Assembly: GCF_026930205.1 (NCBI RefSeq)
Contig: NZ_JANHOI010000001.1
Span: 248,001 to 312,000 of the forward strand
Origin: Bartonella sp. 220B
GTDB lineage: Bacteria; Pseudomonadota; Alphaproteobacteria; Rhizobiales; Rhizobiaceae
DNA length: 64,000 bases
Direction: 5' to 3'
Numbering within the stretch: the first letter of the stretch is position 1; the number at the start of each line of letters is the position of its first letter. The notes beneath the pieces were generated by a model, which saw nothing but the letters and a program-made list of their open reading frames with translations, searched no databases and had not been told where the DNA came from. The translations under genes and the position numbers were made by a program. Positions 8,410 to 60,424 of this stretch are shown here, piece by piece.

Positions 8410-9591
8410 ATGGTAGATTCTTCAAAACCAAAAGTTAAACCACATTATGTCGGTACGCGCCGTAAAAAGCCTGTGATTGAGCATGAAACTGTGCATCCTG
8501 ATTCAGAACACATAAAAAATTCAGCAGAATTGGATGCAATAGACAAACAAAACAAGAATATGCGGTTTCAATCCATATCGCACATGACTTGGCTGTATTT
8601 GTTTCTTTCAGGAATTTTAGGTGGTCTTATTGCTTTAGGTCTTTTCATGGGGTTGCAATGGGCGCGTGTGCTTCCTTCTTATTTCGTGGAAAATCGTGTT
8701 GGAGAAGAAAAAGCTTTGCAGATTGCTGAAATTGCAAAAAGTCAGGGTGAACAAACAATAAAGCAATTGGCATATGTGCTTCAAGAAATTGATACATTGA
8801 AAACAAAATTTTCTTCTTTTTCATCACAACAAGTTGAAACAATTCAAACTGATGAAATATCGCAAGAAGAAAGCAAAAAAGCTTTGACTGCTTTGGAAGA
8901 AAAAGTGAAAAGTCTTGAAGAATCTATACAATCTTTCGTTGAAGTATCAAAAGATATGGAAACGGCTTTGTCCGTTGGACAAAACAATGCAAGTACTCTT
9001 GCTCTCTTAAAGCAACGGTTAGAAACTGTACAGAAAGAAATTGCTGCTAAGGGTAGTGAGAAAAAAGAAATCAGCACTGCGCAGTTTATTGCGATCAGTT
9101 CTTTAAAAAATGCTGTAGAGCGTGGCGGATCTTATAGTGGTGAATTGAAAACATTACAGCAATTATCTCCTTCATTTGATGGACTTGATTTATTACAAGA
9201 AACAGCCACTATAGGTCTTCCAAGTTCTGCGCAACTTGCTATGCGTTTTGCTAGTGTTGCGGATGAAATTGTTCGTGTGCAAAATACTGTTGCTGCAGAT
9301 GCCGGTTTTTCTGAAAGGATTTTGGCATGGATAAAGAGTTTAGTTGTGTCACGTCCTGTTGGAAATGTTAAAGGCATGACGTTAGGAGCAATTGTAGCAC
9401 GAATGGAAGTTGCTATTCAAGCAGGTGATTACGAAAAAGCTTTGAGTGAATGGCAAACATTACCCCAAAATGCAAAAGATATTTCGGTGGACTTTGTTCA
9501 TCAACTTGAAAGACATATTGCTGTTCATCAGCTGCTTCAGAAGTTGCTATTCTCTGCACAGCAGGGATCTGTTAAGGCTCTGAAGAGGTAA
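8410..9591 (+). CDS. Mitofilin/Mic60-like inner-membrane protein
   Basis: About 393 aa. A hydrophilic cytoplasmic N-terminus (about 60 residues) is followed by one transmembrane helix (LYLFLSGILGGLIALGLFMG), a long coiled coil (about residues 95-215, rich in Glu, Lys, Ser and Gln) and a C-terminal mitofilin-type domain ending in LSEWQTLPQNAKDISVDFVHQLERH. This is the alphaproteobacterial relative of mitochondrial Mic60, usually sited before hemY. A GTG at 8401 is in frame nine bases before the ATG chosen; neither has a strong ribosome-binding site. Confidence 0.85.
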   Translation: MVDSSKPKVKPHYVGTRRKKPVIEHETVHPDSEHIKNSAELDAIDKQNKNMRFQSISHMTWLYLFLSGILGGLIALGLFMGLQWARVLPSYFVENRVGEEKALQIAEIAKSQGEQTIKQLAYVLQEIDTLKTKFSSFSSQQVETIQTDEISQEESKKALTALEEKVKSLEESIQSFVEVSKDMETALSVGQNNASTLALLKQRLETVQKEIAAKGSEKKEISTAQFIAISSLKNAVERGGSYSGELKTLQQLSPSFDGLDLLQETATIGLPSSAQLAMRFASVADEIVRVQNTVAADAGFSERILAWIKSLVVSRPVGNVKGMTLGAIVARMEVAIQAGDYEKALSEWQTLPQNAKDISVDFVHQLERHIAVHQLLQKLLFSAQQGSVKALKR

Positions 9592-9602
9592 ATAGGCGCA
9601 AG

Positions 9603-11162
9603 ATGATACGTGTTTTTATTTACAGTTTTGTTGTATGTTTGATCGGTTTAGCTTTTGGATGGGTTGCTAATCATAATGGTACTTTTGTTATAACATTTTT
9701 GCATTTTCGGTTTTCTGTCTCATTGTTAACGCTTTTGTGCGCATTTATTTTATTGCTCGGAGTGTTAGCGCTTTCATGGTGGCTTTTATCTGTTCTTTTT
9801 TCTGTACCTAGTGCTCTCTCTCATTATTTTTATCAACGTCGTAAAAAGCGCGGTTATCAAGCTCTTTCACAGGGTATTCTTGCCGTTTTTGCTGGCGATG
9901 GTGTTTTGGCACAACAAATGGAGGCACGTGTTGGAAAATATTTTGCAGATAAACAGGAACCGTTGGTAAAACTCTTACAAGCTCAAATCCTCTCTTTGCA
10001 AAATGACTCTGTTTCTGCCATCAATCTTTATGAGGAGATGAGAAAAGAAGCACCAACACAATTAGCGGGGCTCTATGGTTTGTTTCGTGAAGCTATAAAA
10101 AGCAAAGCCTATGAAGCAGCACAACACTATGCAGAAGAAGCATTGGCTTTATCACCAGCACTTTTGTGGGCAAATCAAGCTGTGCTTGATCGATTGAGTG
10201 TTGAGGGTGAATGGGATAAGGCACTTACTGTTTTTGAACGTGCACAAAAAGTTTTGCCACGTACAATCCGTTTAACTGCGGAACGTCAACATACGCAAGC
10301 TTTGTTGTTGTGTGGAAAAGCGCTTCATTTGTTTGAAACACATCCTGCGCAAGCACGGGCAGCCATTTTGAAAGCACATAAATTGGCACCTGATTTTGTT
10401 CCAATTGTAGTCATTGCTGCTGATATTCTTTATAAACTCAATGAAATGCGTAAAGCTGATAAAATGATTATTGCCACTTGGCAAAAGGAACCTCATCCTG
10501 ATTTGGGAGCGCTTTATCTTGAAAGAGAAGAAGGAGCTGTTGGACGGTTGAAAAGAGCCAAAACACTCGCTTCTTATAATAAAGATACATTTGAAGCAGC
10601 TTTCCTTATTGCCAAAGCTGCTTTGGATGCTGGTGAAACAGCATTGGCAAAGGAACAGGCTGAAAAAGCCCTTCAGTATCATCCGCGGGAAAGTGTTTAT
10701 TTATTGTTGGCAGATATTGAAGAGGCACAAGGAAACAATCAAGGAGCAGTACGTCAATGGCTTTCTTTGGCACTTCGTGCTGAACGCGATCCGGTGTGGA
10801 TGTGTGATGGGGCTGTCTTTCCTTCTTGGTCAGTGGTTTCTCCAATAACTGGTCGTTTGGGCTGTTTTGAATGGAAAGCGCCACCCCGTTTACCTCCTTT
10901 TACATTGGAGGCTACGAATATTGTATCAAAACAAGATAAAAAAGATATTGTGGAAAAAAGTGCTGATGTTGAAGCTAAGATGCTTGAAGAATTACCTCCT
11001 GTAGAGGATGCTCTTTTGCATCATGCACAAGTAAAAAAACAAGATACAGAAAATCAGGATATCAAGATATTCAATAAAACCCACTTAAATGTTGATGATC
11101 CTGGGGTTAAAGCAGAAGAAGAAGGTGCATTTTTGTCAAAAAAGAAATTTCGTTTCTTTTAA
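9603..11162 (+). CDS. hemY: HemY-domain protein with TPR repeats
   Basis: 519-aa protein with two N-terminal membrane helices (about residues 5-25 and 42-65), the HemY_N region and following TPR-like helical repeats (EEMRKEAPTQLAGLYGLFREA; YAEEALALSPALLWANQAVLDRLSVEGEWDKAL). The last 100 residues are hydrophilic and probably unstructured. HemY of this type is not protoporphyrinogen oxidase; it is an inner-membrane protein of uncertain role, often linked to heme synthesis by gene order. It starts 12 bases after the mitofilin gene, so the two probably form an operon. Its survival where hemC and hemD are missing is notable. Confidence 0.9.
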   Translation: MIRVFIYSFVVCLIGLAFGWVANHNGTFVITFLHFRFSVSLLTLLCAFILLLGVLALSWWLLSVLFSVPSALSHYFYQRRKKRGYQALSQGILAVFAGDGVLAQQMEARVGKYFADKQEPLVKLLQAQILSLQNDSVSAINLYEEMRKEAPTQLAGLYGLFREAIKSKAYEAAQHYAEEALALSPALLWANQAVLDRLSVEGEWDKALTVFERAQKVLPRTIRLTAERQHTQALLLCGKALHLFETHPAQARAAILKAHKLAPDFVPIVVIAADILYKLNEMRKADKMIIATWQKEPHPDLGALYLEREEGAVGRLKRAKTLASYNKDTFEAAFLIAKAALDAGETALAKEQAEKALQYHPRESVYLLLADIEEAQGNNQGAVRQWLSLALRAERDPVWMCDGAVFPSWSVVSPITGRLGCFEWKAPPRLPPFTLEATNIVSKQDKKDIVEKSADVEAKMLEELPPVEDALLHHAQVKKQDTENQDIKIFNKTHLNVDDPGVKAEEEGAFLSKKKFRFF

Positions 11163-11257
11163 ATAAAGAAAGGTGTAGTGAATATTGTTCGCTAAAATTA
11201 TTTTCTTATATTTGAAAAATGAAATTTGATTTTGTTGCAGAAGTGATTGGTTAAAAA

Positions 11258-11998
11258 ATGTTTCTACATCAAAGATGTCTTGATAAAAAGCAAAGAAAGT
11301 GCAAACCAAGAATTGCGGTGGTTATGCATCGTCACTCTACATATACTGGTCGTTTGGGAAAATTTTTGCAACAAAGTGGTTTTGTGCTTGATATTTATCG
11401 CCCTCTTTTAGGACAAAAACTCCCCGATACATTGAAGCATTATGCTGGTGTTGTTATTTTAGGGGGACCGATGAGTGTGAATGACAAGGACGCCTATATT
11501 GGTGAAGAAATCGATTGGATTTCCCTATCGCTGAAAGAAAATAAACCTTTTTTGGGTATTTGTCTTGGCGCACAAATGCTAGCGCGGAATCTTGGGGGGC
11601 GTGTTGGTACAAGAAGTGATGGAACTGTTGAAGTTGGTTGGTATCCGCTAGAAGCAACCTCACAAGGAAAGGCATTAATGGATTGGCCAGAAATGGTTTA
11701 TCATTTTCATGATGAAGGTATTTATGATTTACCTAAAGAGGTGGTGCTTTTGGCAACAGGACATACATATCCTACACAAGCATTCCGTTATGGAAAAAAT
11801 GCATGGGGTTTGCAATTTCATGCCGAATTTACGCGTGCTATGATGCGGCGTTTAGTGGCTCGTTCGGCACACAAATTGACCGAAAAAGGTGCTCAGCCTG
11901 CTTCTGCACATTTGAAAGGTCGTTTGATCTATGATCACGCTTTGAGCCAATGGTTTGAAAATGCATTGCAACAGATTTTTTGTGTATCTGTTACATAG
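11258..11998 (+). CDS. Class I glutamine amidotransferase (GMP synthase-like)
   Basis: 246 aa with a complete class I glutamine amidotransferase triad: nucleophile Cys in FLGICLGAQML, His and Glu in LQFHAEFT. GGPMSVND near residue 70 forms the oxyanion region. There is no ATP-pyrophosphatase domain, so this is a stand-alone GATase1 enzyme rather than GuaA. Such proteins in rhizobia are annotated as GMP synthase-like; the amido acceptor is unknown. The first 17 residues are basic and variable, so the start may be later. Confidence 0.88.
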   Translation: MFLHQRCLDKKQRKCKPRIAVVMHRHSTYTGRLGKFLQQSGFVLDIYRPLLGQKLPDTLKHYAGVVILGGPMSVNDKDAYIGEEIDWISLSLKENKPFLGICLGAQMLARNLGGRVGTRSDGTVEVGWYPLEATSQGKALMDWPEMVYHFHDEGIYDLPKEVVLLATGHTYPTQAFRYGKNAWGLQFHAEFTRAMMRRLVARSAHKLTEKGAQPASAHLKGRLIYDHALSQWFENALQQIFCVSVT

Positions 11999-12047
11999 GC
12001 GTAAAAATTAAGAAATTTGTTCATCTAAGATAAGGAAAGTTTTAATT

Positions 12048-13207
12048 TTGTCTATGTTTTCTTACTTGGCATCACTGCGAAAAAGCCTTTCTTTGAGCAC
12101 TTTGCTTGGTGGGCTCTTGTGTCTTATTCTGATACTTATTTATAGTTCACTCTGGTTTTTTTTTCACGTAAAATAGAGGACCATATTTCCAATCTATTCT
12201 CTAGGGCGTCCACTCATGATATGACGCTTGTGTGTGAGCATCTTAGCAAAAATGGTTATCCCTTACGTATTGGTGTTGTTTGTGATCAATTTCAGTTTGC
12301 TTGGCCTTTGCACGGGATTTCCTTATCAACGGAGCGTTTAACGGTTGGTGCACCAATTTATGCCCCTCATTTTGTAGAGTTTAATGTTCATTCCCCTACA
12401 TCAATTGTTTTTGCTGGAAAAGCGCCTATCGCATCACATTGGCGCAATCTGGTGATTGAAACGGAGCCTTATTGGAGGACAGGCAAGATATTTAAGCTTA
12501 TGGTTGAAGGGATTGAAATTTCTACTATCGCTTCATCTCTTGAAGAACAAAAATTTCAAAGAAAATTAGAACCACAAACGAAAAACAAAAAGGCAACACA
12601 AGAAAAGGCTGGAGAACAAGAAGCTTTGAAAGATGTTCCGGATGTGATTTTTCCTCCGTTAGATCAAAAAAATGTACCCCAAAAAATAACAGCAGAATTT
12701 TTGCGACTTGATCTTAAACATGAAAAAAATCATTTATCGGGGCATATTACTTTCGATGATTTTGATGCTTCTCTGTTTTTTGCACCTTATTTTATTGATT
12801 TTCCAAAAATTGATGGCAATTTGAAATGGATTTTCAATGATGTGGGTTATCTGTTTGAAAATGGAAAAGACATTTGGAAAAAGCGCTTATATAGGAAAAA
12901 TGGACTTTTAGAGCACGGTGAATTGATTTTTCATACAGGGGGTGTATTGCGTGTTAGTGGACCTTTTTCCTTCGATAATGAAGGATATTTGACAGCAAAT
13001 TTTGAGCTTGTCTTTGTTCGGCATATGGAGCTTCTTACGACTATGCAACGTTTGTTTCCCGAGCAAGCCAATAATCTGCAGACTTTATTTTTTGTTTTAG
13101 GTGTGATGCCTAAAAATGCAGATGGCAACCCTGTTCTCTCTTTGGTTATTAATCATGGATGGGCAAAATTAGGATTTTTAAAACTAGGACGTCTTGCACC
13201 GCTTTAA
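12048..13207 (+). pseudogene. DUF2125 family protein, frameshifted at a 9-T run
   Basis: The 5' part starts at TTG 12048 or ATG 12054, with AAGGAAAG upstream, and encodes a short basic N-terminus and one membrane helix (STLLGGLLCLILILIYSSLWFF). It then stops at TAG 12174. The main 3' part is open in another frame to 13207 and reads IEDHISNLFSRASTHDMTLVCEHLSKNGYPLRIG, a typical continuation of DUF2125 proteins. The break coincides with nine T residues at 12156-12164; one extra T would join the frames exactly. The gene is therefore a recent pseudogene, a slippage-corrected or phase-variable gene, or a sequencing error. DUF2125 proteins are envelope proteins of unknown role. From an internal ATG at 12221, 328 aa could be made without the signal anchor. 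Confidence 0.8.
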
Positions 13208-13258
13208 ATCTAAGGTGAGTTTTAAAATTATGCCATCAATTCTGCTACTAAGATAAAG
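13207..13258 (-). pseudogene. Decayed copy of the 3' end of the glutamate dehydrogenase gene
   Basis: This 52-base stretch aligns without gaps to 13374-13425, the C-terminal codons and stop of the adjacent NAD-GDH gene, at about three quarters identity by eye (for example TTTTAAA, CTGCT and TAAAG blocks in register). It looks like the end of an old tandem duplication. Confidence 0.5.
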
Positions 13259-13388
13259 TACTTTTAAGTGCTATGTCTCGCAGTGCAGATGGAAAGCTTC
13301 ATTCTTACTTTGGTGATTATCCTTGACTAGGAAAATGATGGCTTTTAAAACTTGATTATCTTGCTCTCTTTTCAATCTGAGGTATATT

Positions 13389-16300
13389 TTAAAGTTGTGC
13401 AATCATACCTGCTGCGAAGGTAAAGCGGGAAATATTGAGATCATTTTCAATAAGAGCACCAATGCGATTTGTTACATTATGAATTTGATCTTCTTTTGTC
13501 TTACTCCAAGCTGCGAAGGAATTCTCTTTCGCGCCATAATTTTTTAGGATTTTCAGAACAATTTTGCGTAAACTTTCAGCAATATTTTCTTTAGCTTGGC
13601 TTAAGGCCATACTATCATAATAATCAAGGACAGGAATTGTGCGACTTGCTTCATTAATGCGATTTATACGAATAATTTGCGCAAGTGAGAAATAGATCTC
13701 TGCTGTTTTAATAAGGTCGCTGTTGCTTTGTTTTGCAATCAAAGAAATGTCACAAATTATGGGAGCTGCATCCAAGAGAGCTAATTGCTTTGCTAAAGTC
13801 TTTGGTGCACCTTCTTCACTATAATGATTTGTTTTTTCTTTAATTTTTTGATTGATATCTTTATCATTGGAATGTGTCAGCAGTTCTTCAAGAACAGTAC
13901 GGGCTTGCTTTATTGTTTTTACAAGTTCTTCTAATGGAATCGAGAGATCCATATTACGCAAGCCCCAATTTGTTGTTTCAAAAAGCATTGACGTAATGGC
14001 TGCGTAAAATTTGTTTTGAACAAGACCTGGTATTTTATTATCAAGTTTATCAATTTGATCAGACAATTGGGGTATTTCAAAGCCATCACACAATGTGATG
14101 AAAACACGAATGATATTTTCAACCTTTTGTTCAGTGGCATCTTGGAGTCGACTCACAAAAGTAGTCCCTCCACGATTCACAATATCGTTGGCAATGAGGG
14201 TGGCAATAATATGACGACGCAATTGGTGGTTAATGATTTCTTTTTCAAAACTTGTCTGAATTTGCGTGGGGAAATAGTGTAATAAGATTTTGTCAAAATA
14301 ACTTTCATCAACAATGGCACTATGGGCGATTTCTTCTTTGAGGGTTAGCTTTGCATATGCCAAAATGACAGCGAGTTCTGGACGTATCAGTCCTTGACCT
14401 TGTGTTATTCTTTGCCGCAAAATTTGTTCATCAGGGAGAATTTCAACTCGGCGATCGAGAAGTTTCTTCTGTTCCAAATCATGCATAAAACGTATTTGAT
14501 AAGGTAAATCTGCAACGCTTTGGCTTTCAGCTAGAGAAAGAGCAAGGGGTTGTAGATAATTGTTGCGTAGGACTAATTGTTCAACTTGGGGAGTCATTTT
14601 TTTTAAGAGTTCATTACGTGCTTCGCGGGTGAGTGTTTTTGTACGAAGCGCTGACGCTAAAACAATTTTGATATTGACTTCAACATCTGAACAATTAACA
14701 CCTGCAGAGTTATCAATAGCGTCTGTATTGCATCGCCCACCATTTAAGACATATTCAATACGACCGCGTTGTGTGACACCAAGATTGGCTCCTTCACCAA
14801 TAACTTTTGCACGAACTTGATCACCCGTAATGCGGAGTGCATCATTTGCACGATCCCCTACTTGTGCATCCGTTTCTGTTGTTGCACGGATGTAAGTACC
14901 AATGCCGCCAAACCATAAAAGATCAACAGGTGCTTTGAGAAGAGCAGAGATAATTTCAAAGGGGGTTCCTGTTTGTTTTTCAAAACCAATCGCTTGCGCG
15001 GCTTCGGGTGAGAGAGTAATGGTTTTCATTGTCCGTGAGAAAATACCACCACCCTTTGATAATTTTGTTTGATCGTAATCCTGCCAACTTGAACGAGGAA
15101 GTTGAAAGAGACGCATACGTTCTGCATAGCTTTCACTTATGTTTGGATTTGGGTCGATAAAGATATCGCGGTGATCAAAGGCAGCAATAAGTTTTGTTTG
15201 TTTGGAAAGAAGCATTCCATTGCCAAAAACATCACCAGACATATCACCAACACCAATACAGGTGAAGGGGGTTGTTTGAATATCGTGATTAAAGGATTCT
15301 CGAAAATGTCTTTTAACGGCTTCCCACGCACCTTTCGCTGTAATCCCAATGGCTTTGTGGTCATAACCTGCTGAACCTCCAGATGCAAAAGCATCATCAA
15401 GCCAAAAGTGATTTGCTTGGCTAATGGTGTTAGCTGTATCAGAAAATGTTGCTGTGCCTTTGTCGGCAGCAACAACAAAATAAGGATCATGATCATCATG
15501 ACAAATGATATTGTGAGGAGCGCTTATTTCGCCGTTAACCAGATTGTCGGTGATAGAAAGCAAAGCTGTGATAAAGTCAATATAAGCTTGTCGTGCAGCT
15601 TCTATTATGACAGCACGATCATTCGTTTGAGGAAGGTGATGAGGATAAAATCCACCTTTTGCTCCAACAGGGACGATGACAGCATTTTTAACTTGTTGGG
15701 CTTTGACTAAGCTCAAAACTTCAGTGCGATAATCGAGTGCACGATCAGACCAACGGATTCCGCCGCGGGCAATAGGACCAAAACGCAAATGAACCCCTTC
15801 AACTTCTGGTCCATAAACAAAAATCTCTCTATAGGGGCGCGGTTCAGGTAAGCCTTCAATTTGGCGAGGATCTAGCTTGGTTGCTAAAATACGTCGTGGA
15901 TCACCATTTTCTAGAGGAGTAAAGGCATTGCTTCGTAAACTCGCATCGATAAGATTACGATAACGACGTAAGATGAGATCATCATCTAAACCGGATACTT
16001 TCTGTAATTTTTCTTCAATGCGTTGTTGAATAATCTGTTGATTCTTTTCTCGCTCTTTTTCTGTATGGCTTTGATGAAATTTCAAATGAAACAAAGCATA
16101 AAGATCTTGTGTAATATCAGGGTAAGCGTTTAAAGTTTGAGCAACGCGGTCTTGGGAATAAGGAATTCCAGCTTGTTGGAGATAACGTCCATAATGGCGC
16201 AAAATGACAATTTCTCGCCAATTAAGCTCAGCTGTCTGAGTTAAAGCATTAAAGGCATCATTATCCGCATTTTGCGACCAAATGGCTTCGAATGTTTCGG

Positions 16301-47524: not shown

Positions 47525-48223
47525 TTAATTATTCAACAGTATTTCCGGGTCAGCGCGGTAACTTGTCACTTGGAAACCAAGGGGGTTAAGCAATCGATCA
47601 GATGATTTCATTGGTGCACCGACATAGGTGTAGCCAATTGTTGCGATCTGGTGTTGTTTCTGTCCAACGGCACCGGTAGCGTCGTGTTGTTGCGTCGTAA
47701 AGCGCACTGTTGCTTGCCCACGTCCATTCGGTTGGATTGAACGCACTTTCACTGTAATGCGCGCTTTGTTAGAAAGCACTTTGTCACGTGCATCCTCACC
47801 TTCATAGATCTTATAAAATTCCTGTTGAACAGTTGGTGCGCTCAAAAGCGCTGTAGTGTCATAATTTAGCTGAATGGTATCGTAGTCATAAGTTTCACGG
47901 TTAAGAATATATTGATTGAGCCAATATCTGTCCACAACTTCGCCATAGCTGGTTTCATGCTCGCGCATCACAGAAATCACATCAACCGCACCCGTTGTGT
48001 TATCGACACGTAGCACCAAAGGTGTTGGAGCTGGTTGGGAAAAGCCGACAACTCCACATATCATTCCAAACAACCCAAAGACCCCAACAACACCTGCTAC
48101 ACGCCACGCTGTTTTCCGTGATTTTATAAATTCGCCAATAAGATCACGCTCTAATCCTCGGCTTTCTTCGTAATAACTTTTAAGTTGTTCGGCTTTTACT
48201 GGTTTAGCTTGATTTTTTCTCAT
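47525..48223 (-). CDS. trwG: Trw T4SS inner-membrane protein TrwG (VirB8-like)
   Basis: 232 aa. A cytoplasmic tail of about 40 residues (SYYEESRGLERDLIGEFIKSRKTAW region), one membrane helix (VAGVVGVFGLFGMICGVVGF), and a periplasmic VirB8 domain with VVDRYWLNQYILNRETYDYDTIQLNY and the conserved NPLGFQVTSYRADPE near the end. It is an assembly factor between inner membrane and core. Its ATG overlaps the stop of trwH by four bases. A 42-residue duplicate of its 5' end survives at 50439-50567. Confidence 0.95.
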   Translation of the reverse strand: MRKNQAKPVKAEQLKSYYEESRGLERDLIGEFIKSRKTAWRVAGVVGVFGLFGMICGVVGFSQPAPTPLVLRVDNTTGAVDVISVMREHETSYGEVVDRYWLNQYILNRETYDYDTIQLNYDTTALLSAPTVQQEFYKIYEGEDARDKVLSNKARITVKVRSIQPNGRGQATVRFTTQQHDATGAVGQKQHQIATIGYTYVGAPMKSSDRLLNPLGFQVTSYRADPEILLNN

Positions 48224-48363
48224 ATTGTTTCTCGCTGAATTTCGGCAGGGATTGTTTTATTCACAGGCACACGGTTCCAATTATTTGGTTTTTTCAGCTG
48301 TGGTGCGGATATACAAGCTGGTAAAAGGCTTGTGATCAAAATTGTCAAAATGATGTGTTTCAT
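48220..48363 (-). CDS. trwH: Trw T4SS lipoprotein TrwH (VirB7-like), copy next to trwG
   Basis: 47-aa lipoprotein. The signal peptide ends in the lipobox LLPAC, so Cys17 is lipidated, leaving a short periplasmic peptide with KKPNNWNRVPVNKT, a segment that contacts VirB9-type proteins. The stop overlaps the trwG ATG (ATGA). It differs from the other copy at nine of 47 residues, mostly in the signal peptide. Confidence 0.9.
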   Translation of the reverse strand: MKHIILTILITSLLPACISAPQLKKPNNWNRVPVNKTIPAEIQRETI

Positions 48364-48552
48364 TTTTTAATTTCCTCTTTTTGCCGCAATATAAAATTCT
48401 AATATTTATGTCATTATTTCAATTTTGATTAAAAAGTAAAGAGCATAGTTTGTAATTGCTTCTCTTTTCTTAATTTCATTTTTATTTACAGAAATATTTA
48501 ACTACAGCATAAATATATTTTTTACTGGATTGTTGGATATTTTTGTTAGTTC

Positions 48553-49820
48553 ATTATGTCGATTGCTACCGAGAAATTACTTTCTACTTGCTGTATCTAA
48601 TTTCCAGAGATGCCCAAATGTAATGCCTTTAGCCAAAGCATTGGCAATGCTTGACAGTTTGAGCAATAGCACGATGGATATAATGGATAAGATGAGGGCA
48701 CCGCCAAGCGCGTAACTCACATTTTGCTGTCCATCGAATTTTAGATCTGTCATATAATTTGCAAAGATGTTCATCATCAAACTAAATACGGTAGCTAGAA
48801 GTACAATGAGAATCGTATAGCTTAAAATTTGAGCTATCCATTGTTCAAAAAAGCGATAGGTTGGTTGCCAGAGCAAGGCAATGATAAAGAGTGGTCCGAG
48901 TCCTACGAGGAGTACAAGTGCGACTTTAGCAAGCAGAATGAATGCCCCACCAATTGCTGTTAGGAAGCTTGTAGCAAGCAAGATAAGGATGCCGAAGAGG
49001 CCATAAAGTAGTCCGTCAGCATTCAAAAAAGCCGCTTCTTCGAAAGCTTCACTTGCACGTGTGAATCCATTTGCAGCTACTTTGTCAATCAAACTGATTA
49101 ATTGGCTTTCTTTTGATGGATTTGGCATCAACGCATTTGATAGGTCCTGTGGCATTTTTATTATCACATTTGCGATGTCTTGCTGATATAGTCCTGCGGA
49201 CAATGCTATTGAAGTAATAATGCTTATTCGCAAGCAACGGCTTAAGAAGCTAGAGACTGGCATATCGACGACACTGCGAATAACGAGCCATCCATATACG
49301 ATGAAAGCGATACTGAGTCCGATTGATATGAAGGGTGTAATTGTAACAATTGTTTTTGAGGAAATATCCGTGACATATGTATTTGTTACTTGATCAATTT
49401 GATTGAAAAGTTGTGTGAACATATTGAAGCTCATGGCATTCCTCTTTAGCGAATTTTTAATTTTTCATTTTTTTAGAATATTGGTGCATGCTGCAATTTT
49501 CTTTGTGTTTACACGATTTGCCAAAAATATTTTTTGGGTATTAATTGGGCATTAAGATAATTAATTTTACACGTTCTTTCAGTCTGTTGGGACTGCACTA
49601 GGCATTTCTTTTTTCAAAGAACAGAGAACGTTGATGATATAAGCTGTGTTATTATAAAACTTTATTGTATAGCCATCACTCACCGTATCTTTACAGTAGG
49701 CATTTGTGTATTTTTATGGTTTAAAATTTGTATATTGCGTTTATATTTTTGCTGGCGGATTAATGCTTGTTCTGCATTGCGTAAATGTGCAACCATTTGC
49801 AATTTTGTCGCTTCATTTTG
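48553..49820. repeat. 1,268-bp duplicate block, copy A
   Basis: Identical as far as I can read to 50894-52161 (offset 2,341 bases). It covers all of trwI, the spacer and the last 45 codons of trwJ. Identity stops sharply at both ends. Confidence 0.9.
48577..49434 (-). CDS. trwI: Trw T4SS membrane protein TrwI (VirB6-like), copy A
   Basis: 285-aa polytopic inner-membrane protein with about six hydrophobic segments. IGGAFILLAKVALVLLVGLGPLFIIALLW is the conserved VirB6/TrbL core. The periplasmic loop (about residues 85-120) contains NALMPNPSKESQ. It forms the substrate and pilus platform. GAGGA precedes ATG 49434. The amino-acid and DNA sequences are identical to copy B. Confidence 0.94.
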   Translation of the reverse strand: MSFNMFTQLFNQIDQVTNTYVTDISSKTIVTITPFISIGLSIAFIVYGWLVIRSVVDMPVSSFLSRCLRISIITSIALSAGLYQQDIANVIIKMPQDLSNALMPNPSKESQLISLIDKVAANGFTRASEAFEEAAFLNADGLLYGLFGILILLATSFLTAIGGAFILLAKVALVLLVGLGPLFIIALLWQPTYRFFEQWIAQILSYTILIVLLATVFSLMMNIFANYMTDLKFDGQQNVSYALGGALILSIISIVLLLKLSSIANALAKGITFGHLWKLDTASRK

Positions 49821-50402
49821 AATCATGGCGAATGTACTTTTTATGTGGACTTGTAATTCAGCAATGCTTTTCAGATCTTGTGTATCTCTGACCTCCATTA
49901 AATATTGTGCGATTTGCATAAAACGACTGTCGGCCTCTTCAAAAACTTGCAAACTTACAACCTTATCTAAAATAGCTGCATATTGGGTACGTAGATCAAT
50001 AAGTTCACGTGTTTCATGGACCGTATTTTTTTGAGAATACTCTTCTTCTCGTGCTTGAATATCCTTAATGAATTTAGGAAATTTTGAGGAAATCTCTGCT
50101 TCTTTATTCTCATTATAGATGTGTTGTGGCGCCTCAAGTAGAAGATCACCCTCATCTTTTTTCATGGTGCTTTGTATTCGTACGCCTGTTATAGAATCAT
50201 GTATTTGTTGAATGCGAAAAAGCTGTTTATTTGATATATTAACTTGATTTTCCATAGCTTCGAGTAATTGAGTTCGAAATGCTTCTTCACTCTCTTCTAC
50301 TGCCTTTTCTGCTACCTTTTTTGTTATCTCTTCTGCTCTTAATGTTGGGTTTGATGTTATCAATGACGCACTTATTGCTGTTGCAATAACCAGCTTTTTC
50401 AT
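49680..50402 (-). CDS. trwJ: Trw T4SS minor pilus protein TrwJ (VirB5-like), copy A
   Basis: 240 aa with a signal peptide (KKLVIATAISASLITSNPTLRA). A helical, charged body of VirB5 type follows, with a C-terminal TRVR-like stretch ending NHKNTQMPTVKIR. VirB5 proteins sit at the pilus tip; in Bartonella they are candidate adhesins for red cells. The last 45 residues equal those of copy B, while the rest is clearly different. It starts 36 bases after the truncated trwG. Confidence 0.9.
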   Translation of the reverse strand: MKKLVIATAISASLITSNPTLRAEEITKKVAEKAVEESEEAFRTQLLEAMENQVNISNKQLFRIQQIHDSITGVRIQSTMKKDEGDLLLEAPQHIYNENKEAEISSKFPKFIKDIQAREEEYSQKNTVHETRELIDLRTQYAAILDKVVSLQVFEEADSRFMQIAQYLMEVRDTQDLKSIAELQVHIKSTFAMIQNEATKLQMVAHLRNAEQALIRQQKYKRNIQILNHKNTQMPTVKIR

Positions 50403-50438
50403 ATTTTTCTTCTCTTAATTTTATGTATTACAGGAATA

Positions 50439-50567
50439 TTAAAAGTTGTATTGCGTTCTCCGTGATTTTATAAATTCACTAATGAGATCACGCTCTAAAC
50501 CTCGGCTTTCTTCATAGTAACTGTTAAGCTGTTCCGCTTTTACTGGTTTAGCTTGATTTTTTCTCAT
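50439..50567 (-). pseudogene. Truncated trwG, first 38 codons then stop
   Basis: Encodes 42 residues, MRKNQAKPVKAEQLNSYYEE and onward to FIKSRRTQYNF. The first 37 or so match the cytoplasmic tail of TrwG with two changes, then the frame ends before the membrane helix. It retains the ATGA overlap with trwH copy B. It marks the join of a tandem duplication unit. Confidence 0.85.
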
Positions 50568-50707
50568 ATTGTTTCTCGCTGAATTTCGGCAGGGACAGTT
50601 TTATTCACAGGCACGCGGTTCCAATTATTTGGTTTTTTGAGTTTTGGAGCTGATGCACAAGCTGATAAAAGACTGGCGATCAAAATTGCAAAAATGACTG
50701 ATTTCAT
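50564..50707 (-). CDS. trwH: Trw T4SS lipoprotein TrwH (VirB7-like), second copy
   Basis: 47-aa lipoprotein with lipobox LLSAC (Cys17). The mature part matches the other copy almost fully (KKPNNWNRVPVNKTVPAEIQ). It is intact, so two VirB7 variants can be made. Confidence 0.9.
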   Translation of the reverse strand: MKSVIFAILIASLLSACASAPKLKKPNNWNRVPVNKTVPAEIQRETI

Positions 50708-50893
50708 TTTAACACTCCTCTTTTTCGCATAATATAAAATTTTGATATTTTTGTCATTATTTCAATTTTGATTAAAAAGTAAAGAGCATAGTTTGTGATT
50801 TTTTCTTTTTTCTTAATTTCGTCTTTTATTTATGAAAATATTCATCTGCAGTGGAGATGTTTTTACTGGACTGTTGAGTATTTTTGTCAATTA

Positions 50894-52161
50894 ATTATGT
50901 CGATTGCTACCGAGAAATTACTTTCTACTTGCTGTATCTAATTTCCAGAGATGCCCAAATGTAATGCCTTTAGCCAAAGCATTGGCAATGCTTGACAGTT
51001 TGAGCAATAGCACGATGGATATAATGGATAAGATGAGGGCACCGCCAAGCGCGTAACTCACATTTTGCTGTCCATCGAATTTTAGATCTGTCATATAATT
51101 TGCAAAGATGTTCATCATCAAACTAAATACGGTAGCTAGAAGTACAATGAGAATCGTATAGCTTAAAATTTGAGCTATCCATTGTTCAAAAAAGCGATAG
51201 GTTGGTTGCCAGAGCAAGGCAATGATAAAGAGTGGTCCGAGTCCTACGAGGAGTACAAGTGCGACTTTAGCAAGCAGAATGAATGCCCCACCAATTGCTG
51301 TTAGGAAGCTTGTAGCAAGCAAGATAAGGATGCCGAAGAGGCCATAAAGTAGTCCGTCAGCATTCAAAAAAGCCGCTTCTTCGAAAGCTTCACTTGCACG
51401 TGTGAATCCATTTGCAGCTACTTTGTCAATCAAACTGATTAATTGGCTTTCTTTTGATGGATTTGGCATCAACGCATTTGATAGGTCCTGTGGCATTTTT
51501 ATTATCACATTTGCGATGTCTTGCTGATATAGTCCTGCGGACAATGCTATTGAAGTAATAATGCTTATTCGCAAGCAACGGCTTAAGAAGCTAGAGACTG
51601 GCATATCGACGACACTGCGAATAACGAGCCATCCATATACGATGAAAGCGATACTGAGTCCGATTGATATGAAGGGTGTAATTGTAACAATTGTTTTTGA
51701 GGAAATATCCGTGACATATGTATTTGTTACTTGATCAATTTGATTGAAAAGTTGTGTGAACATATTGAAGCTCATGGCATTCCTCTTTAGCGAATTTTTA
51801 ATTTTTCATTTTTTTAGAATATTGGTGCATGCTGCAATTTTCTTTGTGTTTACACGATTTGCCAAAAATATTTTTTGGGTATTAATTGGGCATTAAGATA
51901 ATTAATTTTACACGTTCTTTCAGTCTGTTGGGACTGCACTAGGCATTTCTTTTTTCAAAGAACAGAGAACGTTGATGATATAAGCTGTGTTATTATAAAA
52001 CTTTATTGTATAGCCATCACTCACCGTATCTTTACAGTAGGCATTTGTGTATTTTTATGGTTTAAAATTTGTATATTGCGTTTATATTTTTGCTGGCGGA
52101 TTAATGCTTGTTCTGCATTGCGTAAATGTGCAACCATTTGCAATTTTGTCGCTTCATTTTG
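50894..52161. repeat. 1,268-bp duplicate block, copy B
   Basis: Twin of 48553-49820. The flanking trwH and trwJ 5' sequences have diverged, so the identity is local. Confidence 0.9.
50918..51775 (-). CDS. trwI: Trw T4SS membrane protein TrwI (VirB6-like), copy B
   Basis: 285 aa, identical to copy A in protein and DNA, with the same ribosome-binding site. Flanked by its own trwH and trwJ, so each unit is J-I-H in transcription order. Confidence 0.94.
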   Translation of the reverse strand: MSFNMFTQLFNQIDQVTNTYVTDISSKTIVTITPFISIGLSIAFIVYGWLVIRSVVDMPVSSFLSRCLRISIITSIALSAGLYQQDIANVIIKMPQDLSNALMPNPSKESQLISLIDKVAANGFTRASEAFEEAAFLNADGLLYGLFGILILLATSFLTAIGGAFILLAKVALVLLVGLGPLFIIALLWQPTYRFFEQWIAQILSYTILIVLLATVFSLMMNIFANYMTDLKFDGQQNVSYALGGALILSIISIVLLLKLSSIANALAKGITFGHLWKLDTASRK

Positions 52162-52851
52162 GAACACGGCGTTTGTACCTTCAACGTATGCTTGTAATTC
52201 AGCTATCCCTTTCAGATCTTGTATATTTTTAATATCAACTAAAGGTTTTTTGACTTCCCTAGAGCGATTTTCTACTTCATCAAAAACTTGCAAACTGATG
52301 GCTTTATCAACAATCGCTGCATATTGGCTGCGTTTTTCGATAAATGCACGTGCTTCAGGAATTGAAAGAAAGTTAATATTTTGCTCTATTATTTGGTCTA
52401 TTATACTTTCTTGCATTTTAGCAGAATCTGGAATATCTGTTTTAGCATGCATCGGAAGGTTTTTCTTATCAAACCTATTTTTATTGTAGATAGAGTGAGG
52501 ATTTTTAAAATATTGAGCATCTATGTTAACTGCTTTCAAAATATAAAAATCACGATTGCCCGTTATATTTCGGTGTATTTCATCATGTTTTTGAAATTGT
52601 TCTTTTATGGTTTGAAGCTGTTTTTTTGCTAAAACAACAATCCTCTCTTTTTGCGATAGTTTTGTCTGTTCTTCTTCGGAAACTTCCAATGTTTGCTTGG
52701 AGTTATGACTTGTTTCTGCCTCTTGTTGTATATCTTTTACAGAAGTAGGAGGGGAGCTGTCTTGTAGCAAAGAACTTTCATCAGCTCTCAGATTTGTGCT
52801 CTGTATTCCAAAAACTGTTGCTATTACTACTGAAATAATAGTTTTTTTCAT
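52021..52851 (-). CDS. trwJ: Trw T4SS minor pilus protein TrwJ (VirB5-like), copy B
   Basis: 276 aa, the longest of the three. The signal peptide (KKTIISVVIATVFGIQSTNLRA) is followed by a Ser/Glu/Gln-rich insertion and then the helical VirB5 body. The C-terminal 45 residues equal copy A. Only scattered blocks of the middle are shared, such as QYAAIVDKAISLQVF. Confidence 0.9.
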   Translation of the reverse strand: MKKTIISVVIATVFGIQSTNLRADESSLLQDSSPPTSVKDIQQEAETSHNSKQTLEVSEEEQTKLSQKERIVVLAKKQLQTIKEQFQKHDEIHRNITGNRDFYILKAVNIDAQYFKNPHSIYNKNRFDKKNLPMHAKTDIPDSAKMQESIIDQIIEQNINFLSIPEARAFIEKRSQYAAIVDKAISLQVFDEVENRSREVKKPLVDIKNIQDLKGIAELQAYVEGTNAVFQNEATKLQMVAHLRNAEQALIRQQKYKRNIQILNHKNTQMPTVKIR

Positions 52852-53319
52852 GTTATTTTTCTCTTTGTAATTATTTTACAATTTTAGCATATATCCATTA
52901 TAATTTCAATTTTGATTGTAAATTATATATTTTAATCATTTGTACTTTTATTCATTGAAATATCCACGTGCAATGTTGATATTATCTTTTAAGTTGTTGA
53001 ATGTTGGTTATCTGAATTACTAAAGAGAATATTTCCTACTAGATCTAATTTACAAATTTCCAAATGTAATATCTATCTTTTCCCAACGAATATGTTTGCG
53101 GTGTAGCTTTAGTAATAATATGATGAAAGCGTTGAAAGGGCGAGATCCTCTCTTCAAGCAATAGTTTGCGTTTTTGCATGTAGCTTGATTTCTGTTAACT
53201 ATTTGTAGATTACATAGGTATAAAAATACTTCATTATAAAATTGGATATGGTCACTAAAAGAAATACAGTTAAATACAAATAGAAAAAGCTTATAATATA
53301 AGCAAATTATCATGAGTTT
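52852..53319. other. Decayed part of a third J-I-H unit
   Basis: Lies between trwJ copy B and trwJ copy C, where a trwI and a trwH would be expected. The 52890-53030 part resembles the trwH-trwI spacer of the intact units (for example TTTCAATTTTGATT). Only a trwI remnant is recognised. Confidence 0.6.
53015..53145 (-). pseudogene. Remnant of a third trwI (3' end)
   Basis: Shares in order with the trwI 3' end: TACTAAA-AGA-TATTTC (from ctaccgagaaattactttc), TAGATCTAATTT, TTTCC-AAATGTAAT and AGTAATA-ATGATG-like blocks. The coding frame is ruined and most of the gene is gone. Confidence 0.6.
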
Positions 53320-54081
53320 TTAACGTATAGAGCGTATTGTTGGCATTCCTTTATTTTCACTATTAAGAATTATCATATTGCGTTTTTGCTTTTGTTGGTT
53401 AATAAGTGCTTGTTCTGCTTTGCGTGAATATGCAACCATTTGCAATTTCGTTGCCTCATTCTGAATCATAGCCAACATACCTTTTATGCGTGCCTGTAGT
53501 TCAGCAATGCTTTTTAGATCGGTTGTTGTGTTTATTTGTTCTACTAGCTCTGAGATTTGTTTAAAGCGATTTTCTGTTTCTTGAAAAGTTTGTAAACCTA
53601 TAGCCTTATCAATGGCGGTTGCATATTGGATGCGTTGACCGATAGAATTACGAGATTGACGAATAGAAGTAGAAATCTCCTCTTCTTGCAAAATACCTGC
53701 AAGCAATGCGGATATATTTGGTTGGCCATTTTTATAAATTAATTCTGGATTTTTTAGAAAAAAGCTGGTGTGATCTGTTTTTATAGCCTTGGATTTTGAA
53801 CCACTCATAATAGAGCTCTGTATTTTTTGTTCTTGCTCAAACTGTTTTTTGTTTATCTCAAGTTGTTGTTTTATTAAATTAATGAGCTCTACATAATGCT
53901 GCGGTGGAGGGTTTTTTTGGGGTGATGTCTTTTTCTTGGACGAACTCCAAGAAAACAACTTAGGTAAAGATGGAACTGATCGCCCTAAATCCACTGCCCC
54001 AGCTCCAAACGTAAAAGCGTTTGCAGCATTTGCTGTCGCTAAAACTGCTGCTATTGCTATTGATATGACTTGCTTTCTCAT
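53320..54081 (-). CDS. trwJ: Trw T4SS minor pilus protein TrwJ (VirB5-like), copy C
   Basis: 253 aa, next to trwK as in R388. The signal peptide (RKQVISIAIAAVLATANAANA) is followed by a Lys/Pro-rich stretch (SSSKKKTSPQKNPPPQHY) and the helical body with SIAELQARIKGMLAMIQNEATKLQMVAYSRKAEQALINQQKQKRN. It is the most diverged of the three at the C-terminus (MPTIRSIR). Start overlaps the trwK stop by four bases. Confidence 0.9.
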   Translation of the reverse strand: MRKQVISIAIAAVLATANAANAFTFGAGAVDLGRSVPSLPKLFSWSSSKKKTSPQKNPPPQHYVELINLIKQQLEINKKQFEQEQKIQSSIMSGSKSKAIKTDHTSFFLKNPELIYKNGQPNISALLAGILQEEEISTSIRQSRNSIGQRIQYATAIDKAIGLQTFQETENRFKQISELVEQINTTTDLKSIAELQARIKGMLAMIQNEATKLQMVAYSRKAEQALINQQKQKRNMIILNSENKGMPTIRSIR

Positions 54082-56872: not shown

Positions 56873-57184
56873 TTAGGTGATATAAAACAATAGAGCGCTA
56901 ATATAGAATGCTGCGCCTGCGACGATAACACTGAATGACCATCGTATAAACGTAGCCTTTGAAATGATGCGAAATAGATAAATAAGCAGTAGAAATAAAA
57001 AAATAACAGCACCAGCAATGGGAATAACCATACTTAACCCATATTGCATACCTATAAAAATATCTATAAATTTGGTTGTCGTTTGAGCATATGCCTGTTG
57101 AGTCAGTAAAAACATAATCAATGTTATGAAAAAATCGCGAATCCTTTTGCAAGTTTCTGCTTGAAGAGTATTTAATTGTTTCAT
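56873..57184 (-). CDS. trwL: Divergent TrwL (VirB2-like pilin)
   Basis: 103 aa from ATG 57184 (GAAGG upstream). Signal segment FFITLIMFLLTQQAYA, then two hydrophobic helices. The pattern TFIRWSFSVIVAGAAFYISALLF aligns with TFVRWAVGVVIAGSAVQLTTMLF of the other copies, but AIGYAGRYIEKD is replaced by LIYLFRIISKA. Closest to trwM, and possibly the ancestral or structural subunit. Confidence 0.82.
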   Translation of the reverse strand: MKQLNTLQAETCKRIRDFFITLIMFLLTQQAYAQTTTKFIDIFIGMQYGLSMVIPIAGAVIFLFLLLIYLFRIISKATFIRWSFSVIVAGAAFYISALLFYIT

Positions 57185-57313
57185 ATTTTTACCTTCATTA
57201 TGATTGAAATCACTATAAATAAAATCTCTTTTTACAGCATCATTACCGTCACATCTACAACCAATTGATATGGCTATTAAGAACATTTCATGCATTTAAT
57301 TTCATATTTGGCT

Positions 57314-57622
57314 TTATTTAGGTGTAAATAACATCGTGGTAAGTTGAACTGCCGACCCAGCAATAACAACCCCAACAGCCCACCGTACAAAGGTATCTTT
57401 TTCAATATAACGCCCTGCATAACCAATTGCTAAGCATAAAAGTATAACAGCAGCTGCGGTAGGGATGATGTTATCAATCAGGTCGGTTTTCAGTTTTTCT
57501 AAAGCGTCTTTAACTTTCAATTGAGCATATGCAGGGTGAGACATAAAAAATGCAGTTACAGCCGCAGATATTGTGATGATTTTGTTATCATTTTTTAATT
57601 TGATATTATTAAATCGTTTCAT
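57314..57622 (-). CDS. trwL: TrwL (VirB2-like pilin), copy 4
   Basis: 102 aa from ATG 57622 (GAGG before it; the frame runs up to 57652). Signal peptide ends HPAYA. AAVILLCLAIGYAGRYIEKD and FVRWAVGVVIAGSAVQLTTMLFTPK form the two pilin helices. The C-terminal half is identical in sequence to copy 3; the variable part is about residues 31-50. Confidence 0.9.
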   Translation of the reverse strand: MKRFNNIKLKNDNKIITISAAVTAFFMSHPAYAQLKVKDALEKLKTDLIDNIIPTAAAVILLCLAIGYAGRYIEKDTFVRWAVGVVIAGSAVQLTTMLFTPK

Positions 57623-57735
57623 TTTTTCCTCTAAGGTTTTTATTATTCTCAATAATTAAGTGAGACTATTTAAATTGATAAATAATCGCCATATTAAAAA
57701 ACATTTTGCATTTTAACTACCTTTTACAGTCAGCT

Positions 57736-58047
57736 TCAAACAGGTGTGAACAACATCGTAGTAAGTTGAACTGCTGACCCAGCAATAACAACCCCAACAG
57801 CCCACCGTACAAAGGTATCTTTTTCAATATAACGCCCTGCATAACCAATTGCTAAGCATAAAAGTATAACAGCAGCTGCTACAGGGATAATGTTTTTAAT
57901 AAGATCTTCCTGCAGCTTTTCTAAAGCCTTTTTAGCAGGTTCTAGCGTTGCATGTGCAGGATGAGTCATAAAGAATGCAGTTACAGCTGCGGATATTGTG
58001 ATGATTTTGTTATTATATTTTGATTGGGAATTATTTAATCGTTTCAT
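57736..58047 (-). CDS. trwL: TrwL (VirB2-like pilin), copy 3
   Basis: 103 aa. Signal peptide ends HPAHA. The short variable stretch TLEPAKKALEKLQEDLIKNIIPVAA precedes the two invariant helices. Spaced about 425 bases from its neighbours, start to start. Confidence 0.9.
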   Translation of the reverse strand: MKRLNNSQSKYNNKIITISAAVTAFFMTHPAHATLEPAKKALEKLQEDLIKNIIPVAAAVILLCLAIGYAGRYIEKDTFVRWAVGVVIAGSAVQLTTMLFTPV

Positions 58048-58149
58048 GTTTTTCTCTAAGGATTTTATTTTCTCAATAATTAAGTGAGACTGTCATTAGT
58101 TTATTTATAAGTTATACATATCATGTTAGTGATATGAAAATTAACTACA

Positions 58150-58473
58150 TTATGATGTTAGTAACATCGTAACAAATTGGCTTGCCGATCCAGCGATGAT
58201 AACCCCGACTGCCCATCGCACAAATGTATCCTTTCCGATATAGCGCCCTGCATAACCAATCGCTAAGCATAAAAGGATAACAGCAGCCGCGGCAGGGATG
58301 ATATTTTTAATAAGATCGTTCTCTAGAGCTTTTAAAGCTTTTTTAGCATTTTGCAGCTCTGCATATGCAGGATGAGTTATAAAAAATGCAGTTATAACTG
58401 CAGACATTGCAATAATTTTATTATTATATTTTGATTGGAAATTATTTAATTGCTTTATATTCTTCTTTAACAT
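58150..58473 (-). CDS. trwL: TrwL (VirB2-like pilin), copy 2
   Basis: 107 aa, basic N-terminus MLKKNIKQLNNFQ, signal ending HPAYA. Differs in the conserved helices at a few sites (RYIGKD, GVIIAGSASQFVTMLLTS). It has a weaker ribosome-binding site than the other copies. Confidence 0.9.
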   Translation of the reverse strand: MLKKNIKQLNNFQSKYNNKIIAMSAVITAFFITHPAYAELQNAKKALKALENDLIKNIIPAAAAVILLCLAIGYAGRYIGKDTFVRWAVGVIIAGSASQFVTMLLTS

Positions 58474-58569
58474 TTTTGTGTTCTCAATATTAAGTGACGT
58501 TATTTAAGTTGATAGATAATCATCCCTTTGAAAAATATTTTATCTTCTATTGCTTTTTTATAATCATCT

Positions 58570-58887
58570 TCAATTTGGTGAAAATAACATCGTGGTAAGT
58601 TGAACTGCTGAGCCAGCAACGACAACCCCAACAGACCACCGTACAAATGTATCTTTTTCAATGTAGCGCCCTGCGTAACCAATTGCTAAGCACAAAAGTA
58701 TGATGCCAGCGGCTATAGGAATAATTATATCCAATTCCTTTTTCAATTCGTCTAAGGCCTTTTTTGCATTACCTAATGTTTGTGTTTGAGCATATACAGG
58801 ACAAGCCATAAGAAATACGGTAATAGCTGCAGTAGTCGCAATGATTTTATTATGAACTTTTGTTTGAAGAATATTTGATCGTTTCAT
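58570..58887 (-). CDS. trwL: TrwL (VirB2-like pilin), copy 1
   Basis: 105 aa. Signal ends CPVYA. Variable segment QTQTLGNAKKALDELKKELDIIIPIAAG, then the two helices. Its ATG overlaps the stop of the upstream small gene by four bases, so it is translationally coupled. Confidence 0.9.
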   Translation of the reverse strand: MKRSNILQTKVHNKIIATTAAITVFLMACPVYAQTQTLGNAKKALDELKKELDIIIPIAAGIILLCLAIGYAGRYIEKDTFVRWSVGVVVAGSAVQLTTMLFSPN

Positions 58888-60371: not shown

Positions 60372-60424
60372 AGTATATCTCCGTCAAAGTGATATATTCA
60401 TCATAATTTTAATTTTGATAACAA

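What the first reader, a model, noticed from the sequence alone, without database searches (positions are those of the whole stretch)
48553..52161. Identical 1,268-bp blocks in two trw units point to recent homogenisation of trwI and the trwJ tail
48553-49820 equals 50894-52161 base for base as far as I can read, covering all of trwI, the spacer and the last 45 codons of trwJ. Just outside, the trwH copies differ at 9 of 47 residues and the trwJ N-terminal parts are barely alike. Whole-unit duplication alone would not leave identical cores with old flanks, so gene conversion (or a recent local copy event) is likely. It keeps the platform protein and TrwJ docking tail constant while the exposed TrwJ body diversifies.
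Basis: partly seen in the sequence, partly recalled or inferred. Interest (0 to 1): 0.72.

Follow-up and report, generated by a model that had tools for sequence, protein, structure and literature searches.

The report
Bartonella trwI copies kept identical
In this Bartonella genome two old tandem copies of a secretion-system gene unit share one perfectly identical stretch, most likely because recombination between the copies recently overwrote it, a process already described for this gene cluster in other Bartonella species.

Summary
48553-49820 and 50894-52161 agree in 1,268 of 1,268 bases and the identity stops abruptly at both ends. The block holds 24 nt past the trwI stop, all of trwI, the 245-nt spacer, and the trwJ stop with its last 46 codons. 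Outside it the units differ: 33/185 in the trwI-trwH spacer, 20/144 nt in trwH (9 of 47 residues), 10/113 in a trwG 5' relic, and TrwJ bodies are 37% identical.

Recombination between copies (gene conversion or repeated unequal exchange) is well supported. The two TrwJ bodies pair separately with the two TrwJ bodies of another Bartonella genome, G010 (98% each; sisterhood rejected, AU p = 0.012), yet trwI is identical within each of these genomes and diverged between them. So the duplication is older than the species split and the core was overwritten in each. In 11 of 14 multi-copy genomes trwI groups by genome. The trwH-side flank agrees but is not significant.

That this keeps a TrwJ docking tail constant is not general. 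A new instance of a known kind; low interest.

The parts
48553..49820 (-). homogenised core, unit c: 24 nt past trwI stop, trwI, 245-nt spacer, last 46 codons and stop of trwJ-c
   Evidence: 0 of 1,268 differences to the other copy
50894..52161 (-). homogenised core, unit b: same content with trwJ-b
48577..49434 (-). trwI (VirB6), unit c, 285 aa
   Evidence: Pfam TrbL/VirB6, 159.6 bits; R388 TrwI 7o3v_F E 6.4e-115
50918..51775 (-). trwI (VirB6), unit b, 285 aa, identical to the other
49680..50402 (-). trwJ-c (VirB5), 240 aa
   Evidence: Pfam T4SS PF07996; R388 TrwJ E 3.4e-27
52021..52851 (-). trwJ-b (VirB5), 276 aa
   Evidence: Pfam PF07996
53320..54081 (-). trwJ-a (VirB5), 253 aa, no trwI of its own, tail not homogenised
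   Evidence: Pfam PF07996; tail match 77%; gap without trwI
48220..48363 (-). trwH, unit c, 47 aa, outside the core
   Evidence: ORF with lipobox-like motif (motif recalled); no Pfam match
50564..50707 (-). trwH, unit b, 47 aa, 9 residues different
50439..50567 (-). trwG 5' relic, 42 codons
47525..48223 (-). trwG (VirB8), 232 aa
   Evidence: Pfam VirB8, 157.7 bits
52852..53319 (-). gap between trwJ-a and trwJ-b without trwI or trwH

Best explanation
This is the trw type IV secretion locus of a Bartonella, with an old tandem array of trwJ-trwI-trwH(-trwG') units. Homologous recombination between units (gene conversion, or unequal exchange with the same net effect) recently overwrote one 1,268-bp core with the other, so trwI, the spacer and the trwJ 3' end became identical, while the trwJ bodies and the trwH side stayed old paralogues. 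In trwJ the tract ends at a conserved motif (QNEATKLQMVA), upstream of which the paralogues are less alike. Shown: the identity, its sharp limits, the conflict in age between core and trwJ bodies, the same pattern in other Bartonella genomes. Inferred: that the end of homology sets the limits, that RecA-type recombination did it. Unknown: which unit was the donor.
For: Exact identity with sharp limits. Silent and non-coding sites identical inside; 14-18% different in trwH and the trwH-side spacer. J-body tree: Jb with G010 copy 1 and Jc with G010 copy 2, 98 each; Jb+Jc as sisters rejected, AU p = 0.012. trwI tree: the window pair and the G010 pair are each clades at 100. dS between the window copies 0.000; lowest dS to 49 copies of other genomes 0.401. 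Of 14 multi-copy genomes, 11 have a trwI pair at most 1% different and 11 have all copies in one clade. J-side limit within two codons of that in G010.
Against: The trwH-side flank tree agrees but sister flanks are not rejected (AU p 0.084 to 0.148 in five tests). Three of 14 genomes (G003, G019, G046) keep diverged trwI copies (dS 0.06-0.31), so homogenisation is not constant; G019 is among the nearest relatives. The key comparator G010 is a draft of about 160 contigs with its array at a contig end. Reads of this genome were not available.
Confidence: 0.9

Rival explanations
1. Plain recent duplication of a whole unit, with trwJ and trwH then diverging fast under selection.
For: TrwJ is the variable surface protein and is reported to diversify fast (PMC2883598, passages). 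Sister trwH-side flanks are not rejected.
Against: The non-coding trwI-trwH spacer differs at 33/185 while the trwJ-trwI spacer differs at 0/245. TrwJ bodies are trans-species paralogues, sisterhood rejected at p = 0.012.
Confidence: 0.04
2. Assembly artefact: two similar trwI copies given one consensus, or a repeat misjoined.
For: Draft genome of 66 contigs; no reads to inspect.
Against: Two different left and two different right flanks inside one contig, no N. Five single-contig genomes (G012, G035, G051, G056, G057) show trwI pairs at most 1% different.
Confidence: 0.04
3. Purifying selection alone holds the two copies identical.
For: TrwI is a structural base protein in R388 (PMC9259494, section 6).
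Against: Silent sites and a 245-nt spacer are identical too, and trwI differs by 14.5-17.4% from six copies of four near relatives.
Confidence: 0.01

Closest known systems
Concerted evolution of trwJIH in Bartonella (Nystedt et al. 2008, Mol Biol Evol 25:287, pmid 18065487)
   Same: Co-amplified trwJ-I-H units. Its title, with the words diversifying selection and concerted evolution, was seen in reference lists; that its abstract names gene conversion, homogenised TrwI and divergent TrwJ is recalled. Citing papers, seen in passages, report co-amplification, recombination and selection on TrwJ.
   Different: The paper is not held, so its genomes and tract limits could not be compared. In this window trwH lies outside the tract; in most other genomes with alike trwI, trwH is alike too, G045 copy 6 being another exception.
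[quoted passage not shown]
   Same: TrwI E 6.4e-115 and TrwJ E 3.4e-27 against R388 chains. In R388 a TrwJ/VirB5 pentamer sits on a TrwI/VirB6 pentamer (PMC9259494, section 6).

Membership tests
Bartonella trw locus | Collinear trwL(n)-M-K-J-I-H-G-F-E-D with tandem trwL and trwJIH | tested here: met
   ORFs and order; Pfam for K, J (three), I, G and two of the five trwL-like proteins, one of these two just below the cut-off; trwM, F, E, D and trwH named by position and recall
Concerted evolution / gene conversion | Paralogous cores more alike within a genome than to orthologues | tested here: met
   dS 0.000 within, at least 0.401 to 49 copies of other genomes; clade at 100
Concerted evolution / gene conversion | Older, trans-species history of the trwJ-side flank | tested here: met
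   J-body tree, 98 twice, AU p = 0.012
Concerted evolution / gene conversion | Older, trans-species history of the trwH-side flank | tested here: inconclusive
   Tree agrees; AU p 0.084-0.148
Concerted evolution / gene conversion | Non-reciprocal transfer as opposed to unequal crossing-over | not testable with these tools
   One genome's final sequence cannot separate them
   7 of 11 genomes with alike trwI have at least one such pair with clearly different tails

The most novel reading that the evidence does not exclude
The trwI-plus-tail core acts as a recombination chassis: a conserved TrwJ motif is a recurrent exchange point, so that variable TrwJ heads are reshuffled as cassettes on a constant TrwI base, recalling pilin cassette systems.
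Probability: 0.2. Interest if true: 0.45.

Novelty: new member of a known kind. Interest (0 to 1): 0.2.

Why it matters
It is a clean example of how a tandem secretion-system array can hold its base protein constant while its surface protein diversifies, with both limits of the copied tract resolved to the base. It also suggests that the array once had at least three units here, and that the shared TrwJ tail is better read as a by-product of where homology ends than as a requirement.

Tried and rejected
Selection alone was rejected because non-coding and silent sites are identical. Plain duplication was rejected on the J-body tree. The trwH-side flank was treed first and tested five ways (one, four) without significance, so it is not used as proof. 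A trwI relic in the gap 52852-53319 was looked for; the best trwI match is 30 nt at 80%, E 0.042. A promoter scan gave no excess (45 found, 44.8 expected). Rfam gave one match below its gathering score (26 against 45 bits).

Rows dropped before counts: trwI copies without an ATG at the expected start or under 250 codons (both G039 copies, near contig ends; three partial or interrupted copies in G046; fragments in G036, G042, G023, G022), leaving 51 units. From the J tree: G035 copy 1 and two proteins outside 150-400 residues (G027, G028 copy 2). TrwH was not found by my pattern in 10 of 51 units and was short in 2. TrwJ starts were set by a simple rule and some may be wrong. The tail comparison is ungapped from the C-terminus and overstates differences where tails differ in length; the tails are printed. 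The match list was cut at its weak end.

Full report
WHAT IS THERE. The window carries the trw type IV secretion locus of a Bartonella on the minus strand. In transcription order: five trwL-like genes, trwM, trwK, trwJ-a (53320-54081), trwJ-b (52021-52851), trwI (50918-51775), trwH (50564-50707), a 42-codon trwG relic (50439-50567), trwJ-c (49680-50402), trwI (48577-49434), trwH (48220-48363), trwG, F, E, D. Pfam supports K, the three J, I and G; of the five trwL-like proteins two were scanned, one above and one just below the cut-off (26.3 against 27.9 bits); trwH had no match. trwM, F, E, D and trwH are named by position and recall. Solved relatives are R388 TrwI (7o3v_F, E 6.4e-115) and TrwJ (7o3v_A, E 3.4e-27). 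By sdhA the nearest of 60 other genomes drawn from the genus are 91-92% identical. They include G019, whose contig length (217,356) equals that of a Bartonella vinsonii subsp. berkhoffii record.

THE OBSERVATION. 48553-49820 equals 50894-52161 in 1,268 of 1,268 bases and cannot be extended by one base on either side. It runs from 24 nt downstream of the trwI stop, through trwI and the 245-nt spacer, into the last 46 codons of trwJ. Outside the block the units remain alignable (48111-50016 against 50455-52357, 93.5% over all) but differ: 33/185 in the trwI-trwH spacer, 20/144 in trwH, 10/113 in the trwG 5' part, 56/196 in the trwJ stretch next to the block. With 124 difference columns in 1,907, none of 2,000 random placements left a clean run longer than 205.

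WHY IT IS RECOMBINATION. First, the identical core includes silent and non-coding sites: trwI 0/858 and spacer 0/245, whereas six trwI copies from four near relatives (three of them in G019) differ at 14.5-17.4% and 30-38%. The lowest dS to 49 trwI copies of other genomes is 0.401. Second, the J side is old. In a tree of 51 TrwJ proteins without their last 46 residues, TrwJ-b groups with copy 1 of G010 and TrwJ-c with copy 2 of G010, both at 98; forcing the window's two together is rejected (AU p = 0.012). Yet trwI is identical within the window's genome and within G010, and each pair is a clade at 100 on a long branch. So the J duplication predates the split of these species and the core was homogenised separately in each. 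G010 is a draft with its array at a contig end. Third, the pattern is common: of 14 genomes with at least two full-length trwI copies (window included), 11 have at least one pair at most 1% different, and in 11 all copies form a clade; the exceptions to the clade are G019, and G045 and G049, which intermix. G003, G019 and G046 keep diverged copies (dS 0.06-0.31). The genus search found a TrwI-like match in 46 of 61 genomes, but many of the matches are only distant VirB6-type relatives at about 24-36% identity, and the list was cut at its weak end.

WHAT IS WEAKER. The trwH-side flank tree puts window unit b near G019 copy 3 (support 52-81) and unit c with the B. vinsonii flanks (90-99), as expected of old paralogues, but sister flanks are not rejected (p 0.084-0.148). 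Which unit was donor, and whether it was conversion or repeated unequal exchange, cannot be told from one genome. Reads were not available. Both copies lie inside one contig with different flanks on both sides, and five single-contig genomes (G012, G035, G051, G056, G057) show trwI pairs at most 1% different, so an artefact is unlikely.

THE TAIL. In R388 a TrwJ pentamer does sit on a TrwI pentamer, one VirB5 binding between two VirB6 subunits (PMC9259494: section 6 read; other passages). But of 11 genomes with alike trwI, 7 (G012, G016, G028, G045, G049, G051, G056) have at least one such pair with clearly different TrwJ tails, and trwJ-a in this same operon has its own tail. The J-side limit lies at a conserved motif, QNEATKLQMVA, within two codons of the limit in G010. 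The simpler reading is that the tract ends where homology between trwJ paralogues weakens (inference).

A THIRD UNIT. TrwJ-a groups with TrwJ of G019 copy 1 and of two B. vinsonii loci (92), and those are followed by trwI. Here it is followed by 468 nt without recognisable trwI or trwH. The array therefore probably had three units and lost one trwI-trwH (inference). Its own tail, 77% alike, fits the view that homogenisation spreads with trwI.

WHAT IS KNOWN. Nystedt et al. [quoted passage not shown] I saw its title in reference lists, could not read it and recall its abstract. Papers seen in passages cite it for trwJIH amplification, recombination and selection on TrwJ (PMC2883598, PMC3483213, PMC2610397, PMC2653234, PMC10936683), and PMC6299047 speaks of gene conversion at trw. 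The finding is a further instance of a known kind.

SIDE LEAD. A 19-nt AT-rich element 46-47 nt upstream of each trwH is conserved and complementary to codons 4-10 of trwH. On 28 sequences 87.2% of cells pair, against 30.8-54.5% when the partner is slid by 1-3 columns. Covariation support is weak: one pair with changes on both sides (422 of 500 shuffles reach this), covariation score reached by 82 of 500, cells with changes on both sides by 22 of 500.

Noticed in passing
48411-48429 and 50754-50772 (- strand), with trwH starts at 48335-48353 and 50679-50697: A conserved 19-nt element in the trwI-trwH spacer is complementary to the first codons of trwH, possibly an mRNA hairpin with the start site in its loop; conserved in 28 sequences, covariation weak.
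   Followed up: partly
52852-53319: Gap after trwJ-a without recognisable trwI or trwH; a diverged copy of the spacer element lies at 52898-52916 upstream of trwJ-b.
   Followed up: partly
50439-50567: 42-codon 5' relic of trwG at the end of unit b, a scar of the original unit duplication.
   Followed up: partly
56873-58887: Five tandem trwL-like pilin genes; repeat copies over four of them are 62-80% identical to a reference copy.
   Followed up: no
60401-60419 (- strand): A further two-mismatch copy of the 19-nt element, about 1.5 kb upstream of the first trwL-like gene.
   Followed up: no
L058 (G046), 8413-14098: Three partial or interrupted trwI copies beside intact ones in one array.
   Followed up: no
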